Below are positions 19,901 through 42,867 of a stretch of 64,000 nt of DNA, piece after piece. Positions within the stretch are counted from its first letter, which is position 1. Each line of letters starts with the position of its first letter. Position numbers and translations under genes: made by a program. The notes under the pieces are model-generated. The model did no database searches. It saw only the letters and a list, made by a program, of their open reading frames with translations, and was not told the DNA's origin. Source of the DNA: Methanocorpusculum sp. (GTDB lineage Archaea > Halobacteriota > Methanomicrobia > Methanomicrobiales > Methanocorpusculaceae); assembly GCA_017399555.1 (NCBI GenBank), contig JAFQBW010000028.1, forward strand, positions 1 through 64,000, in the 5' to 3' direction.

Positions 19901-20245
19901 ATGACAAATCCGCCTGTTGAAGCCCAGCCGGTCATCCACTTAGACGAGACGAATTTTAACACCTTCACCCTCCAGATACCAAACGTTGTCGTTGACTTCT
20001 GGGCGGAATGGTGCGGACCGTGCAAATACTTCGCCCCCATCTTTGAAGAAACCGCAAAAGAGTATCCCGAAGTCCAGTTCTGCAAATGCAACACCGACGA
20101 AAACCGCTGGATTGCCCAGGAACTCTGCATCAGCTCGATTCCGACCATCATGTACATCCAAAACGGCACCGTCGTAAAACTCAGAGCAGGTGCTATCAGT
20201 CAGGAGAAATTCCGCGAAGAGTTAAACTCCGTATACCGTACATGA
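19901..20245 (+). CDS. trxA: Thioredoxin
   Basis: This 114-residue protein has the thioredoxin fold with the active site AEWCGPCKYF near residue 41 and the cis-proline segment SSIPTIMY near residue 83. It is a cytoplasmic disulfide reductase. The N-terminal ~18 residues form a short extension. ATG at 19901 is chosen; the frame reaches back to 19847 but runs over the EamA stop. The stop overlaps the ATG of the following helicase (ATGA), an unusual coupling of a thioredoxin to a helicase. Confidence 0.92.
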   Translation: MTNPPVEAQPVIHLDETNFNTFTLQIPNVVVDFWAEWCGPCKYFAPIFEETAKEYPEVQFCKCNTDENRWIAQELCISSIPTIMYIQNGTVVKLRAGAISQEKFREELNSVYRT

Positions 20246-22353
20246 GTACCTTTCAGGACCTGCACCCGGTATTACAGGAAATCCTCATCTCCGGCCTTCG
20301 CTGGGATGAACTCCGCGAAGTACAGGAGGCGTCCTTATCCGCCGTATCCTCCGGTGCAGACATCCTTGTCCTCGCGCCGACCGCCGGCGGAAAAACGGAG
20401 TCTGCATTCCTTCCGGTACTGGATGCGATTCTCAAAAGACCGACCGGAAAACTTTCCGCGGTCTATCTCTCCCCCTTAAAAGCCTTAATCAACGACCAGA
20501 CGGAGAGAATCGTCTCTCTGGCGAACCGGGCAGGGCTTTCTGTTGCCGTACAGCACGGCGATGTAAAAGGCGCTGACCGCTGGAAGTTTCAGGGCGGAGA
20601 AGAGCCGGACATTCTTTTAACCACGCCGGAATCCCTCGAAGTCCTCCTGGGAGATAAAGACGCAAATCAGGCGTTCTCTCGCCTTCGGTTCGTCATAATC
20701 GACGAAATCCATGCGTTTATTGAGACCTCCCGCGGCGTGCATCTCCGCTGTCTCTTAGACCGGCTCTCTTTTGCCTCGGCAGAACACATCATCAGAATCG
20801 GACTCTCGGCAACCGTCGGCAACCCGGAAGAACTCCTCTCCTGGATGTCAGCTCCCGAGCGGCAAAAACAGTTAGTCCGCGTACCCTCGCCGCCCGCTAA
20901 AAAGGCATTTACCTTCTGCGTAAACCCGGACTTCTTCTCCCGCATAGATGCCGCAGCAGACGCTGTCCGCGGCAGAAAATCCCTCATCTTTGTCGAGAGC
21001 CGAAGCCTTGCCGAACGGCTGGTCGAGCCGCTGAGAGAACGCTTGTCCTCCGTGCACATCCACCACTCCGCAGTCAGCCCCGAAGACCGCCGGGAAGCCG
21101 AAGCCGCGTTTGCTTCCGGCGGGGAGGCATGTGTTATCTGCACCAGTACGCTGGAACTCGGAATTGATATCGGCAATCTGGATTTGGTTGTCCAGTTCGG
21201 GCCGCCCTTGTCTGTCGCCTCCTTTCTTCAGCGGCTCGGGAGAACCGGACGGCGCGGAAAACCCGCACAGATGGCGTTCATCCTCCAGAACCCCTGCGAA
21301 CTGCTCGCCGCCGTATCTGCGGTTGAGTGCGCCATGCAGCACAAATCAGAGGACCTGCATCCGGCATCCTTTGCCGCGGATGTCCTCATTCAGCAGCTCT
21401 TCCTCCTGCTGAAACGAACCGCAGGTCTTGGAATGCCGCAGATTCGAGCCACACTCAAAGCGCTCTCTGCGTTTTCCGACATCCCGGATGAAACAGTTTT
21501 GCAGATTCTCTCCTTCTTAGAAGAACAGGGATACCTTTCCCGCTCCGGCGATTTGTATCTGCCCGGAACAAAGGCCGAGGCGGAGCTTGGAAAATCCCAC
21601 TGGAAGGCACTGCTTTCCGTAATCAACGACACCGGAGGCTACCTCGCGGTTCTTCCGGACGGCACCGTTGTTGGAACACTGGATGCCCGCTTTGTTGCCG
21701 GAGACCCGGGACGGGTGTTTACCTTCACCGGAAAGACCTGGCGGCTTCTCCACCGCGACGATGCACACCGGCGTGCTCTCATCGAGCCATCGTCTGCTTC
21801 CCGCGATATCAAACGCCCCTTCTGGGGAGGAAGCGGGGGAAGTAGCGGCATCAGCCCGCTTCTCTGCTTCCAGGCGGCAGAAATCATCGCCCGCGGACAC
21901 ACCCTTCTGCCGCTGCCGAAAGCCGAAGCGGAACTGCTCGACGACCTCATCCGAAGACTGCCGGATGATATCATCCCGGGAAAAATCCACCTCCGAACCG
22001 AGCCGGAGGTAAACGGCTGGTCGGTTGTCGCCGCAACCTTTGCCGGCGAGACCGCAAACCGCGTGCTGGCAACGCTTCTCAAAAACCGGATGTCCGGCGT
22101 GCATGAAGTCCGCGTAACTCCGTATGCCATCCGCATCTTCGGCTTCGCATCACCGGACGCCGGAGATGCGGTAGCACGTGCTCTTTCCGAAATCGCCGAT
22201 GACCCGCATGCATTCGAGGAACTCCCGCCGCTTCCGGACACTTTCTGGAAATTCGGCGCATACCTGCCGCCTGCCGTAAAAAAAGAAATGACGGACATCC
22301 GGTACTACCGGACAGCCGATATCAGAGCGCTTCTTCAGAACCGAGATTTTTGA
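20242..22353 (+). CDS. Lhr/BrxHI-like superfamily 2 helicase
   Basis: This 703-residue ATP-dependent helicase has Walker A APTAGGKTESA (near 48), DEIH box in VIIDEIHAF (near 154), SATVGNPEELL (motif III region), STLELGIDIG and QRLGRTGRRG (motifs V and VI). The motif spellings and length resemble the shorter Lhr-like helicases such as BrxHI of BREX defence loci more than full-length Lhr (inference from memory). The C-terminal ~300 residues would be the Lhr-type winged-helix and beta domains. ATG at 20242 overlaps the thioredoxin stop. Its last 32 bases overlap the converging FKBP gene. Confidence 0.88.
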   Translation: MSTFQDLHPVLQEILISGLRWDELREVQEASLSAVSSGADILVLAPTAGGKTESAFLPVLDAILKRPTGKLSAVYLSPLKALINDQTERIVSLANRAGLSVAVQHGDVKGADRWKFQGGEEPDILLTTPESLEVLLGDKDANQAFSRLRFVIIDEIHAFIETSRGVHLRCLLDRLSFASAEHIIRIGLSATVGNPEELLSWMSAPERQKQLVRVPSPPAKKAFTFCVNPDFFSRIDAAADAVRGRKSLIFVESRSLAERLVEPLRERLSSVHIHHSAVSPEDRREAEAAFASGGEACVICTSTLELGIDIGNLDLVVQFGPPLSVASFLQRLGRTGRRGKPAQMAFILQNPCELLAAVSAVECAMQHKSEDLHPASFAADVLIQQLFLLLKRTAGLGMPQIRATLKALSAFSDIPDETVLQILSFLEEQGYLSRSGDLYLPGTKAEAELGKSHWKALLSVINDTGGYLAVLPDGTVVGTLDARFVAGDPGRVFTFTGKTWRLLHRDDAHRRALIEPSSASRDIKRPFWGGSGGSSGISPLLCFQAAEIIARGHTLLPLPKAEAELLDDLIRRLPDDIIPGKIHLRTEPEVNGWSVVAATFAGETANRVLATLLKNRMSGVHEVRVTPYAIRIFGFASPDAGDAVARALSEIADDPHAFEELPPLPDTFWKFGAYLPPAVKKEMTDIRYYRTADIRALLQNRDF

Positions 22354-38233: not shown

Positions 38234-38746
38234 ATGAAAGTTCTTCTCGCAATTGCATCAGACAGATTCATGGATGAAGCATACACCATCCCCAAGGCAG
38301 CACTCGAAGCAGCAGGTGCAGAATGCGTCACCGCATCGGTTGTCAAAGGAACCTGCTACGGTATGCACGGCGAAATCGTCGAGGCAGACCTTGCCTTCTC
38401 CGACGTCAACGCCGACGAGTTCGACGGAATTGTCATTGGCGGCGGTATCGGTTGTCAGGACCAGCTCTGGAGAAACGAAGAGCTGATTGACATCGCAAAC
38501 AAGATTGGAAACAACGGAAAGTTCGCCGCCGCAATCTGCTTAGCCCCGGTCATCTTAGGAGAAGCAGGTCTTTTAAACGGCAAGAAAGCAACCACCCTTC
38601 CGACTCCTGCATGTCTTCGCGTCTTAGAGCTTGACAATGCAGAAGTTCTCACAGACAATGTGGTCGTTGACGGCAACATCATCACCGCAAAATCCCCGTT
38701 CGATGCAAAAGCATTTGCAGAAGCCATCATCTCCGTAATTCAGTAA
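38234..38746 (+). CDS. DJ-1/PfpI family protein
   Basis: The 170-residue protein is of the DJ-1/PfpI family: KVLLAIASDRFMDEAYTIP start, DGIVIGGGIGCQDQLW, and a nucleophile elbow AAICLAPVILGEAG with the cysteine near residue 99. Family members are glyoxalases, deglycases, chaperones or peptidases; which applies is unclear. Only three bases separate it from the TPR gene, so it is probably the first gene of the 38234-42804 unit. Confidence 0.88.
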   Translation: MKVLLAIASDRFMDEAYTIPKAALEAAGAECVTASVVKGTCYGMHGEIVEADLAFSDVNADEFDGIVIGGGIGCQDQLWRNEELIDIANKIGNNGKFAAAICLAPVILGEAGLLNGKKATTLPTPACLRVLELDNAEVLTDNVVVDGNIITAKSPFDAKAFAEAIISVIQ

Positions 38747-38749
38747 TAT

Positions 38750-40588
38750 ATGGACAATACCGTACCGGACCCGGCGGCGCTTTCTGCCGCTCTGGAACTC
38801 TTCAACGCGGGAAAGTATGACGAAGTCATCAGCTTTTCCTCCGGCACTGCAGACCCGGCATTAATGCTTCTCTCAGCCCGAAGCTATGCGGCATGCGGCA
38901 AATATGATATTGCCGAGTCGCTCCTTCGCTCCCTTGTCCGAATCATGCCGGGGTCTTCTTATGTCCACAGCTACTTAGGCGACGTTCTGCTTGCCTGCGG
39001 AAAGGAAGAAGCGGAAGCCGAATATGCCCGCGCCATCAGCCTGGATGCGGAAAACATCCCGGCTGTCCGGCAGTACGCAGACTTAGTCATCAGCCGCGGA
39101 GACCTGCGGGGGGCAATTCCGGCTCTTCGGACTCTTGTTCGCCACAGCGGAGCAGAAGAAGACGTGCGAAAACTCATGCGCACACTGACAAACGTCGGCG
39201 AAGCAGAAGAAGCCGTTTCTATCCACCGCAGAAACTTCGGAGAAGATACCTGCAGTGTTGAATACATTGAAGCGCTCATGGCCGTCGGCGAATATCAGAA
39301 GGCGTTAAACCTTGCCCTTCGCGGCTGGACGGAGACAAAAGATACCGCATACCTCCGTCTGGATTTGGAATCGCTGTCTGCCATCGACAAAGATGCCGCA
39401 GAGAAAGCATACCGCTCGGCGCTCGACAGTTTTGAAGAGGCGGACATTGCAGACGACAACGTATCTGCTATCCGCTTCTCCTTCGTTCTTCTGGAAAAGT
39501 ACCGGGAAAACTATGATGCCGCAGAGTTTGAACTCTCTCAGCTCTTAGGTCCGGATGCAGACGCTGTGTATTATCTGCTTTCCGCAGAGATTGCCGCAAA
39601 GAAAGAGGACGGCGAGCGGGCATCTGCAATCTACCGCAGTCTGATTGAATCCCTGATGGCAAAGGATACCGACTGGGAAACGGCAGAGCTTGTCATCGAC
39701 CGCTACACAGCCTTCCTTTCCGCGGTCCGCTCCAAAGAGGAAGTTGCAGGCGTTATCAGCGTGGTGCTTTCGGTCTATCCGCAGGCAGTCTGTCTTGCCA
39801 AAATCGGCGAGGCATATGAAAATGCCGGCGCTTCCCTGCAGGCAAAGGACTGGTTCTACCGTGCCTACCGTGCGGACTATCTCCGCGGCGGCCTTGCCTA
39901 CGCCGGATATCTCAAGCGTTCCGGCGCAGGCCGCGAAGCAGATACGGTCATCCGCTACATTGTAACAAACGCCGCCTCCGTCTCTGATTTGGAGTATGCC
40001 GCAGATGTCATACTGAACGGAGACTCGGCACTTTATCAGCTCGAAAAGTCACGCGGACTCGTGCAGAAGAGTCTTGCCGGAGTCTCCGAGCGTCTGACCT
40101 CCAAAGGACGCGAGATGCTTGCGGCAGTCTATCTCTACTCTGCCGTGGATGCTCTGGAGTGCGGAAACTATGAGGACTGCAAATGGTTCTGTCTTTCCGG
40201 CATTGATGTGCTCCCCTGCTATCCGGAGACCATCAGCATTCAGGATTTCAGCGATATTTTAGCGCGGGTAAAGGGACGCGCCATCTCTGAACGCCCGATT
40301 CTGATGGAAAAAGCCGCAGAAGCATCCGGTGAGACGGAGGAAATTCCGCAGTCCGGCGAAGAGGAGATTCTGCCGAACTTGGACGAACGCGAGAAGAAAC
40401 TGCTTGCCTTCCTGCGCGAACACCGCGAGGCAACGGAGATGGACTTACGCAGTGTGCTCGACACCCGCCGGGTTGCCGGCATTGTAAACGGACTGCTTGC
40501 CAAAACCGCGGAGTTCGGCGTTACGCTGATTGAGAAACGCGGCGTCGGCGAACGGGGAGAGGTATACGGCTATGTCGGCCGCAGATGA
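38750..40588 (+). CDS. TPR-repeat protein with C-terminal winged-helix-like domain
   Basis: The 612-residue protein is built of helical TPR-like repeats (for example GKYDIAESLLRSLVRIMPGSSYVHSYLGDVLLACGKEEAEAEYARAI, about 44-90) up to about 490. A conserved-looking C-terminal part, about 545-612 (EKKLLAFLREHREATEMDLRSVLDTRRVAGIVNGLLAKT), resembles a winged helix. It probably serves as a scaffold, and overlaps the ATPase gene by 17 bases. No signal peptide or membrane segment is present. Named families could not be assigned. Confidence 0.75.
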   Translation: MDNTVPDPAALSAALELFNAGKYDEVISFSSGTADPALMLLSARSYAACGKYDIAESLLRSLVRIMPGSSYVHSYLGDVLLACGKEEAEAEYARAISLDAENIPAVRQYADLVISRGDLRGAIPALRTLVRHSGAEEDVRKLMRTLTNVGEAEEAVSIHRRNFGEDTCSVEYIEALMAVGEYQKALNLALRGWTETKDTAYLRLDLESLSAIDKDAAEKAYRSALDSFEEADIADDNVSAIRFSFVLLEKYRENYDAAEFELSQLLGPDADAVYYLLSAEIAAKKEDGERASAIYRSLIESLMAKDTDWETAELVIDRYTAFLSAVRSKEEVAGVISVVLSVYPQAVCLAKIGEAYENAGASLQAKDWFYRAYRADYLRGGLAYAGYLKRSGAGREADTVIRYIVTNAASVSDLEYAADVILNGDSALYQLEKSRGLVQKSLAGVSERLTSKGREMLAAVYLYSAVDALECGNYEDCKWFCLSGIDVLPCYPETISIQDFSDILARVKGRAISERPILMEKAAEASGETEEIPQSGEEEILPNLDEREKKLLAFLREHREATEMDLRSVLDTRRVAGIVNGLLAKTAEFGVTLIEKRGVGERGEVYGYVGRR

Positions 40589-41858
40589 CCGAAAACTCGA
40601 AAGCACCGCAGTAATCACTGCACTGCGCCGCGGCACCGTCCCGAATGCCGGCCTTTCCCGGCTTGCCGTCGGACTTGAAGCAGAGGAAAAAGTTCTCTCC
40701 GCACAGTTTGCCTTCTGTGCGGCAGGACATGCGGACTGCAAGTTTGTCCGCGGAGACTACGGCGCGGGAAAGACCTTCCTGATTGCCCGTGCAGCAGAGA
40801 TTGCCCTCTCGCAGAAGTTTGTCATCTCCCATGTCGTAATCTCGCCGGATACTCCGCTGCATAAACTGACCGCGCTCTATACAAAAATCTGTGCCGGCCT
40901 TTCAACGCAGACCGAAGAGCATGCGCTCAAAAGTATCATCGACACATGGATTTACGGCATCGAAGACCGCTTAATCGAGACCGGAATTGATGAAAACGAC
41001 GAGCGTCTTGCAGAGCTGACGGAAAAAGAGATTGAAGCCTCCTTAGAGCGGGTTTCCGGACTCAGCTCCGGTCTTGCCGCTGCGGTCCGCACCTACTATT
41101 CCGCAAACAACCGCGGGGATTTTGCAACAGCCCAGGCGGCGGTCGGCTGGATTTCCGGCGATGCAACGGTTGCGAACCGGAGCTTTAAGTCCCAGGCAGG
41201 CATCAAAGGTTCGGTCTCGGAAACCGATGCCCTGCTGTTCTTAAAAGGCATCGTCTATCTCATCCGGCAGGCAGGATTTGCCGGACTCTTTGTCAGCTTC
41301 GACGAAGCAGAAACTGCGCAGGCATTCCCGCGTCCCCAGCGGGAAAAGGGATACATCAACCTCCGCCAGTTAGTCGACATGACGGATAAAAACGAGATTC
41401 CCGGATGCTTCTTCCTCTTTGCCGGAACGCCGGCATTCTTCGAGAGTGCAAAAGGCATCCGATCGCTTCCGCCGCTGTATGACAGAATAGGCATCATCGC
41501 TGATGACGGCTTTGCCAATCCGATGCAGACGCAGATTGTGCTTGCCAAGTTTGACAGCGAAAAGCTGGAAAAGGCCGCCTACAAAGTATCCGAAATCTAC
41601 AGCGAAGGATTCGGAGAAGTTGATAAGTCCCGTGTCTCTCCGGCCTTTATCCGTGCGATGATTGCGAAGGTTACCGGCAGATTCGGCGGCAGAGTCGATG
41701 TTGTCCCGCGTCTTTTCCTCCGCGAGTTTGTGGATGTGCTGGACAAATGTGCGTTGTATGAGAACTATTCTCCGCAGGAGAAGTATGCCTTTACCCCTGG
41801 AAACGGCGATATGCCGCTGAAGGCGGAAGAAAAGGCTGTAATGGAAGTTTCCTGGTGA
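40572..41858 (+). CDS. BREX BrxD-like ATPase
   Basis: The 428-residue protein fits the BREX ATP-binding (DUF2791, BrxD-like) family. Walker A is GDYGAGKTF (61-69), followed by HVVISPDTPLHK; Walker B is LFVSFDEAE (239-247), and FLFAGTPAFFES then LPPLYDRI are typical of this family. BrxD-like ATPases occur in some BREX defence loci and in small standalone pairs with Lhr-like helicases. No pglZ, brxC or pglX is near. ATG at 40572 is used rather than a TTG at 40530; it overlaps the TPR gene by 17 bases. Confidence 0.85.
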   Translation: MSAADDRKLESTAVITALRRGTVPNAGLSRLAVGLEAEEKVLSAQFAFCAAGHADCKFVRGDYGAGKTFLIARAAEIALSQKFVISHVVISPDTPLHKLTALYTKICAGLSTQTEEHALKSIIDTWIYGIEDRLIETGIDENDERLAELTEKEIEASLERVSGLSSGLAAAVRTYYSANNRGDFATAQAAVGWISGDATVANRSFKSQAGIKGSVSETDALLFLKGIVYLIRQAGFAGLFVSFDEAETAQAFPRPQREKGYINLRQLVDMTDKNEIPGCFFLFAGTPAFFESAKGIRSLPPLYDRIGIIADDGFANPMQTQIVLAKFDSEKLEKAAYKVSEIYSEGFGEVDKSRVSPAFIRAMIAKVTGRFGGRVDVVPRLFLREFVDVLDKCALYENYSPQEKYAFTPGNGDMPLKAEEKAVMEVSW

Positions 41859-41862
41859 TACT

Positions 41863-42804
41863 ATGAAGAAAACTGTATATGTAAAAGATATTACGAACGG
41901 TACTGCTGTTGACGATGCATTCATGATTAAGCGTGCTGACCTGCGGGCAAAACGCGGAGAACAGTACATCCACCTGACGATTGCAGACAAGACCGGAGTT
42001 CTTGAAGCCAAACTCTACGGCGAGGAAGCACCGACGGTCGTCCGCGGAATCCAGACGGGACGCGTGTACCGGATTGTCGGAACAGGAAAAGTTCCGCAGG
42101 GCGGAAGCCTTCTCCTGCAGTCCGAGTCTCCGGAATCCTTAGAGGCACTGCTTGCAGGACCAATGCCGCTTGCCGCAGGAGAGGATGTTGAGTACATCTA
42201 CACCCCGGCAAAGATTGCCGAGAATGCCGCAGAACTCCAGAAACTGGTTGCATCCATCCAGAACCAGAACCTGCGCATCTTTGTTGCCTGCTGTCTGGAC
42301 AGCCGCTTCTACGAGTGCCCCGCAGCCATCCGCCGCCACCATGAGTATATCGGCGGTCTTTGCGAGCACACGTTAGAGACCGTAAAGATTGCGCTTGCTA
42401 TCATGGATACCATGCCGCGGACAAAGATTAACCGCGATATGGTAATCGCCGGCTGTGTTCTCCACGACATTGGAAAGATTTTCTGCTTCGACAAAGTAGG
42501 CCAGTCTTATGTGCCAAACGACACCTACAACTTAATCGAGCATATTACTATGGGAATCATGTACATCGACGAGTACACCTCCCTCCTGACTGACTCCCAG
42601 ATTCTGCAGATTCGCCACATCATCCAGTCCCACCACGGAATCTACGGAGATGTTGTCCCGCTGACCGCAGAAGCATGGCTGGTCAACGAAGCAGACGGTG
42701 CAAGCTCGCGCCTTCGTTCAATTGTAGACGACCTGGAAGCAATTCCTGCCGGACAGAAGAAGAAGGGCGTACACTCCGAGAAATTCCTCTGGAAAGCAAT
42801 CTGA
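41863..42804 (+). CDS. OB-fold/HD-domain nuclease-like protein (YhaM type)
   Basis: The 313-residue protein has an N-terminal OB-fold (about 1-95, YIHLTIADKTGVLEAKLYG) and an HD domain (about 145-290) with HHEYIGGLCEHT, VLHDIGKI and HHGIYGD. This architecture matches YhaM/CBF1-type 3'-5' exonucleases acting on RNA or single-stranded DNA. It starts four bases after the BrxD-like ATPase gene and ends before a T-run terminator (42811-42822), so the unit ends here. Confidence 0.82.
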   Translation: MKKTVYVKDITNGTAVDDAFMIKRADLRAKRGEQYIHLTIADKTGVLEAKLYGEEAPTVVRGIQTGRVYRIVGTGKVPQGGSLLLQSESPESLEALLAGPMPLAAGEDVEYIYTPAKIAENAAELQKLVASIQNQNLRIFVACCLDSRFYECPAAIRRHHEYIGGLCEHTLETVKIALAIMDTMPRTKINRDMVIAGCVLHDIGKIFCFDKVGQSYVPNDTYNLIEHITMGIMYIDEYTSLLTDSQILQIRHIIQSHHGIYGDVVPLTAEAWLVNEADGASSRLRSIVDDLEAIPAGQKKKGVHSEKFLWKAI

Positions 42805-42867
42805 ACACTTTACTTTTTTTTCCTTTCAATCCGTAATCTACATATCATCTGCCGCCAACATCATTGT

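What the first reader, a model, noticed from the sequence alone, without database searches (positions are those of the whole stretch)
38234..42804. DJ-1, TPR, BrxD-like ATPase, OB/HD nuclease operon: candidate new defence or repair system
Seen: four genes on one strand with gaps of 3, -17 and 4 bases, ended by a T run. The third encodes a BREX-type ATPase (Walker A GDYGAGKTF at 61-69, Walker B FVSFDEAE, and FLFAGTPAFF). The fourth has an OB-fold plus HD domain like YhaM-type 3'-5' exonucleases. The second is a TPR scaffold with a winged-helix-like end. Known: BrxD ATPases belong to BREX loci, but pglZ, brxC and pglX are absent here. Inference: a compact nucleic-acid surveillance or phage-defence unit not among the named types. 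The neighbours are housekeeping genes, so a core repair role is equally possible.
Basis: partly seen in the sequence, partly recalled or inferred. Interest (0 to 1): 0.8.

Follow-up and report, generated by a model that had tools for sequence, protein, structure and literature searches.

The report
Archaeal BrxD–TPR pair with distant helicase
In one order of methane-producing archaea, an ATPase from a bacterial virus-defence system always sits beside a TPR scaffold protein and always occurs with a matching helicase encoded elsewhere in the genome; this looks like a defence-type DNA machine inherited as an ordinary chromosomal part.

Summary
In a survey of 393 genomes of the same phylum, the TPR gene and the BrxD-like ATPase gene form an obligate adjacent pair: 55 genomes have the ATPase, the same 55 have the TPR gene, always side by side. 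The same 55 also carry a BrxHI-type helicase encoded in trans. DJ-1 and the YhaM-like OB-HD gene are old syntenic neighbours: the HD gene occurs without the pair in two families and is absent where the pair is present in a third. ATPase and helicase are closest to the BrxD-BrxHI dyad of type-2 BREX. PglZ and BrxC are absent and both loci are stable housekeeping neighbourhoods. Shango is also excluded (no TerB; TPR-wHTH instead). Most likely this is a vertically inherited ATPase-scaffold-helicase DNA machine. BrxD-driven loading of BrxHI is inferred, and whether it serves genome maintenance or fixed innate immunity is open. The phyletic match rests on about 2-3 evolutionary events, not 55 independent ones. 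New variant of a known kind.

The parts
38750..40588 (+). TPR superhelix protein (612 aa) with disordered linker and C-terminal winged helix; obligate neighbour of the ATPase
   Evidence: adjacent to the ATPase in 55 of 55 genomes
40385..40576 (+). winged-helix region of the TPR protein (residues 546-609), among its best-conserved parts
40572..41858 (+). BrxD-family AAA+ (ORC/Cdc6-type) ATPase, 428 aa
   Evidence: PF10923 415 bits, NF033438 386 bits over cut-off 350, PADLOC BrxD 393 bits versus SngB 152
40752..40778 (+). Walker A motif GDYGAGKTF (residues 61-69)
41289..41312 (+). Walker B motif FVSFDEAE
20242..22353 (+). BrxHI-type SF2 (Lhr-like) helicase, 703 aa, third co-inherited component encoded in trans
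   Evidence: PADLOC BrxHI 525 bits versus SngC 357; present in exactly the 55 pair-bearing genomes of 393
38234..38746 (+). DJ-1/PfpI protein; syntenic neighbour, not an obligate part
41863..42804 (+). OB-HD YhaM-like 3'-5' exonuclease; syntenic neighbour, not an obligate part
42814..42821 (+). T run after the four-gene stretch (archaeal-terminator-like)
   Evidence: read directly

Best explanation
The working unit is three proteins, not four adjacent ones: the TPR-winged-helix protein, the BrxD-like ORC/Cdc6-type ATPase and a BrxHI-like helicase encoded 18 kb away. Shown: strict pairing, co-inheritance, intact catalytic motifs, purifying selection, fixed housekeeping loci, no BREX core. Inferred: the TPR-wHTH protein is a DNA-binding adaptor that holds the ATPase, and the ATPase uses ATP to load or activate the Lhr-like helicase on DNA, as has been proposed for BrxD-BrxHI in type-2 BREX. 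Also inferred: in these archaea the machine works in genome maintenance or surveillance as a lineage-specific chromosomal function, not as a mobile defence cassette.
For:: of 393 phylum genomes the same 55 carry ATPase, TPR gene and helicase, with a score gap to the next relatives (ATPase 588 vs 245 bits; helicase 535 vs 490); TPR and ATPase adjacent in 55/55; among 61 relatives the helicase follows the pair family by family, while canonical Lhr is near-universal. ATPase tree and helicase tree each put the Methanomicrobiales proteins in one clade with 100% support, with matching subgroups. In 20 of 20 other loci examined (8 BREX, 8 Shango, 3 from family f12, 1 Deinococcus) a BrxHI-like helicase was found in the same locus as the BrxD-like ATPase. 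PMC12839542 proposes that BrxD loads or activates BrxHI. ATPase locus among DJ-1, glycosyltransferase, pyrG, guaA, hisC, hisD; helicase locus among thioredoxin, purF, tRNA-Met; no PglZ in the own genome; dN/dS 0.04-0.06 for the ATPase. ATPase identity between families 56-62%, near hisD (63-67%).
Against: No direct evidence of physical contact between the three proteins. Genomes are not independent: presence/absence needs only about 2 changes on an RNA-polymerase tree. All well-studied relatives are defence genes, and Shango is shown to be antiviral (PMC10250203). Three whole families (f2, f3, f5) live without the set, so it is not essential for the order. TPR (35-39%) and helicase (39-45%) diverge faster between families than housekeeping proteins. 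Fold matches of the ATPase model were weak (best ORC/Cdc6 E about 6e-3).
Confidence: 0.5

Rival explanations
1. The same three-part machine is a resident antiviral system: it works like Shango or the BrxD-BrxHI arm of BREX-2 against invading DNA, but is inherited vertically at fixed loci.
For: Closest homologues are defence proteins; Shango (TerB, ATPase, helicase) protects Pseudomonas from phages (PMC10250203); loss in whole families and faster change of the TPR protein fit a dispensable sensor.
Against: No defence-island neighbours in 20-kb stretches around the pair or the helicase; no nuclease co-inherited with the set; none found on plasmids for the TPR gene, nor in phage records or viral contigs for the ATPase, though methanogen viruses are few in these collections; presence is uniform within families, unlike patchy defence genes.
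Confidence: 0.3
2. A split transcription or signalling regulator: the ATPase and TPR-winged-helix protein act like the NTPase and TPR-HTH halves of MalT/AfsR-type regulators, and helicase co-occurrence is incidental.
For: TPR plus C-terminal winged helix; weak BTAD match (E 0.002); in family f4 a large PAS histidine kinase lies directly upstream.
Against: The ATPase is much closer to BrxD than to STAND regulators; helicase phyletic match is exact; the kinase is confined to f4.
Confidence: 0.1
3. One reading: the four adjacent genes, with the HD protein as nuclease effector, form one defence or repair system.
For: Tight spacing here; HD gene also within 3-45 bases of the ATPase in five of six f4 genomes.
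Against: HD gene present at the same site without the pair in f2 and f5, absent with the pair in f6, and on a different contig in G017 and G019; DJ-1 likewise neighbours the site without the pair.
Confidence: 0.07

Closest known systems
BrxD-BrxHI dyad of type-2 BREX (Pgl)
   Same: ATPase over the NCBIfam BrxD cut-off and about 38% identical; helicase best matches PADLOC BrxHI; same two enzymes always together
   Different: No PglZ or BrxC; helicase encoded at another locus; a TPR-wHTH partner takes their place; type-2 BREX is reported from no archaea (PMC12839542)
Shango (SngABC)
   Same: Upstream scaffold-type protein, PF10923 ATPase, SF2 helicase
   Different: SngA is a TerB_N/TerB_C protein with no detectable similarity to the TPR protein; ATPase only 24-28% identical; Shango genes are contiguous; some of these genomes carry Shango in addition
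258-aa protein/BrxD/helicase triad of archaeal family f12, and the Deinococcus BrxD-helicase loci
   Same: BrxD-like ATPase directly followed by a BrxHI-like helicase, without PglZ nearby
   Different: Different first protein, contiguous locus, separate clades in both trees; one of the f12 loci lies beside restriction-modification genes
Lhr helicases
   Same: SF2 core and Lhr-like layout
   Different: The window helicase is not among the PF08494 (DEAD_assoc) matches of its genome; a separate Lhr is on contig C40

Membership tests
BREX (type 2) | PglZ phosphatase/nuclease | tested here: not met
   No PF08665 match in the own genome; of the pair-bearing relatives only G050 has a strong one
BREX (type 2) | BrxC ATPase | tested here: not met
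   PF10923 (BrxC_BrxD) finds only the one BrxD-like protein in the own genome
BREX (type 2) | BrxD ATPase | tested here: met
   NF033438 385.7 bits, cut-off 350
BREX (type 2) | BrxHI helicase | tested here: met
   PADLOC BrxHI 525 bits, but at another locus
BREX (type 2) | brxD and brxHI adjacent in one locus | tested here: not met
   18 kb apart here, unlinked in relatives
BREX (type 2) | PglX methyltransferase and PglW | not tested
   No search made; the 20-kb neighbourhoods of the pair and the helicase show no BREX gene cluster
Shango | TerB-domain first protein | tested here: not met
   TPR protein has no TerB match and no profile similarity to Shango TerB proteins
Shango | SngB-clade ATPase and SngC-clade helicase, contiguous | tested here: not met
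   BrxD and BrxHI models score far higher; separate clades; not contiguous
Lhr core helicases | DEAD_assoc (PF08494) domain | tested here: not met
   The only PF08494 match of the own genome is on contig C40, not the window helicase
ORC/Cdc6-type AAA+ ATPases | Walker A/B conserved, ORC-like fold | tested here: inconclusive
   Motifs invariant; ORC/Cdc6 chains among the top fold hits but with weak E-values
YhaM 3'-5' exoribonuclease (gene 4) | OB plus HD architecture over the equivalog cut-off | tested here: inconclusive
   Full-length match to NF010007, 89.5 bits against a cut-off of 460; PDB YhaM E 7e-21

The most novel reading that the evidence does not exclude
A BrxD-BrxHI ATPase-helicase module, elsewhere known from phage-defence cassettes, has become a fixed chromosomal machine of Methanomicrobiales with its own TPR-winged-helix adaptor, split over two loci, and does non-defence work such as replication restart, repair or chromosome maintenance.
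Probability: 0.4. Interest if true: 0.75.

Novelty: new variant of a known kind. Interest (0 to 1): 0.58.

Why it matters
BrxD and BrxHI have no assigned activity beyond the proposal that one loads the other. Here nature offers a minimal version without the rest of BREX, so the ATPase-helicase partnership can be tested alone. It also shows that NCBI-style naming would label these genes 'BREX BrxD' in genomes with no BREX. There is a precedent for archaea using defence-type ATPases for core work: Cran1, an OLD-family ATPase, acts in the cell cycle (PMC12796447).

Tried and rejected
Canonical Lhr as the helicase partner: near-universal in the order, so no phyletic signal. Thioredoxin upstream of the helicase as a fourth part: its orthologue is in all six families, including those without the set. 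A conserved peptide upstream of thioredoxin turned out to be an antisense-oriented tRNA gene. TerB-TPR homology: none found. HD and DJ-1 as obligate parts: rejected. Solved structures for the ATPase by sequence: none. Pfam on the isolated winged helix: nothing significant. ATPase in viral contigs and phage records and the TPR protein on plasmids: none. Literature search for DUF2791, and for BrxD with TPR in archaea: no paper.

Full report
Observation. The window comes from a Methanocorpusculum-like methanogen (order Methanomicrobiales; nearest named records; own genome 2.02 Mb). Families: DJ-1/PfpI, TPR, BrxC_BrxD (PF10923, 415 bits) and OB-HD. All four are under strong purifying selection (dN/dS 0.04-0.10 against four close relatives).

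What belongs together. In 61 relatives, the ATPase and TPR genes follow each other family by family: present in f1, f4 and f6, absent from f2, f3 and f5 (distant Shango-type homologues of the ATPase apart), and next to each other wherever both lie on an unbroken contig. In 393 genomes of the phylum 55 have the ATPase orthologue and the same 55 have the TPR orthologue; the two profile matches are 4-28 bases apart in all 55. The HD gene behaves differently. It is adjacent here and in five of six f4 genomes, is 0.5-6 kb away in the second genus of f1, occurs without the pair in f2 and f5, and is absent from f6, which has the pair. DJ-1 and a glycosyltransferase flank the same site in f2 and f5 without the pair. 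The order around the site (hisC, an aminotransferase, guaA, pyrG, DJ-1, glycosyltransferase, [TPR-ATPase], HD, hisD) is an old housekeeping neighbourhood, not a defence island.

The missing partner. BrxD homologues elsewhere are linked to an SF2 helicase. In all 20 loci examined (8 BREX, 8 Shango, 3 from archaeal family f12, 1 Deinococcus) a BrxHI-like helicase lies in the same locus. A search with a BREX-2 BrxHI found an orthologue, 34-40% identical, in the pair-bearing families and only canonical Lhr-type and other lower-scoring helicases in f2, f3 and f5. In this genome it lies inside the window at 20242-22353, where it matches PADLOC BrxHI at 525 bits against 357 for Shango SngC. A profile search of the 393 genomes put the top 55 helicases in exactly the 55 pair-bearing genomes. 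Canonical Lhr (PF08494) is near-universal in the order and gives no such signal. The helicase locus is also stable, with thioredoxin and often purF and tRNA-Met beside it. The thioredoxin is present in all families and so is not part of the set.

How strong the link is. The genomes are related. On an RNA polymerase A' tree all six families are single clades and presence of the set needs 2 changes (786 of 1000 bootstrap trees; 3 in 167, 1 in 47). So the exact match reflects two or three joint gains or losses plus long joint retention, not 55 independent observations. The second line of evidence is the constant BrxD-helicase association in every other lineage examined. The third is that the ATPase tree and the helicase tree each give one Methanomicrobiales clade with 100% support and matching subgroups.

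Mechanism. Shown: motifs intact and invariant; TPR superhelix, disordered linker and winged helix in a confident model (pLDDT 89; fold matches are TPR superhelices such as OGT, Naa15 and Ski3); ATPase model of moderate confidence (pLDDT 81) with ORC/Cdc6 chains among weak top hits. From the literature: BrxD is classed as an ORC-Cdc6 AAA+ ATPase and may load or activate BrxHI (PMC12839542). Inferred: the TPR-wHTH protein brings the ATPase to DNA and the ATPase loads the helicase. Whether the purpose is maintenance or immunity cannot be settled here. Fixed loci, uniform presence within families and slow ATPase evolution (56-62% identity between families, near hisD at 63-67%) favour a resident chromosomal function. 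Descent from defence proteins, family-wide loss and a faster-changing TPR protein keep immunity open.

Comparison. It is not BREX: PglZ and BrxC tested and absent, and type-2 BREX was found in no archaea (PMC12839542). It is not Shango: no TerB protein, different clades, not contiguous. It works, by homology, like the BrxD-BrxHI arm of BREX-2 with a new adaptor. I found no paper describing it, within the open-access library only.

Noticed in passing
window 40572-41858: NCBIfam NF033438 is passed (385.7 over 350 bits), so public annotation would name this 'BREX system ATP-binding protein BrxD' although PglZ and BrxC were not found in the genome: a likely misleading label across Methanomicrobiales.
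   Followed up: yes
L053-L055, L057, L058 (family f4), upstream of the TPR gene: A 1,600-1,850 aa PAS-domain sensor histidine kinase sits directly upstream of the TPR gene in family f4 only.
   Followed up: partly
L159, L160, L161, L158: Complete Shango-type triads (TerB-like protein, ATPase, helicase) in some Methanomicrobiales and one other archaeal family; in L158, L159 and L161 next to SbcC/SbcD-like genes.
   Followed up: partly
L155-L157 (family f12): An undescribed contiguous triad: 258-aa protein without Pfam match, BrxD-like ATPase, BrxHI-like helicase; in L155 beside restriction-modification genes.
   Followed up: partly
G015 contig C18; G001 contig C7; G407 contig C4: Copies with broken frames (ATPase in three pieces in G015, stops in the TPR and HD genes of G001, a stop in the helicase of G407): assembly errors or decay, not resolved.
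   Followed up: no
L117 6608-7963: The 451-aa protein before BrxD in Deinococcus psychrotolerans has a weak TPR_22 match (E 0.019), so a helical-repeat partner of BrxD may exist outside archaea.
   Followed up: no
L126, L137, L138, L140 upstream of thioredoxin-BrxHI: A tRNA gene lies just upstream of the thioredoxin-helicase pair in several families (a tRNA-Met by its CAT anticodon, as read); tRNA genes are common integration sites, which may hint at how the helicase first arrived.
   Followed up: partly
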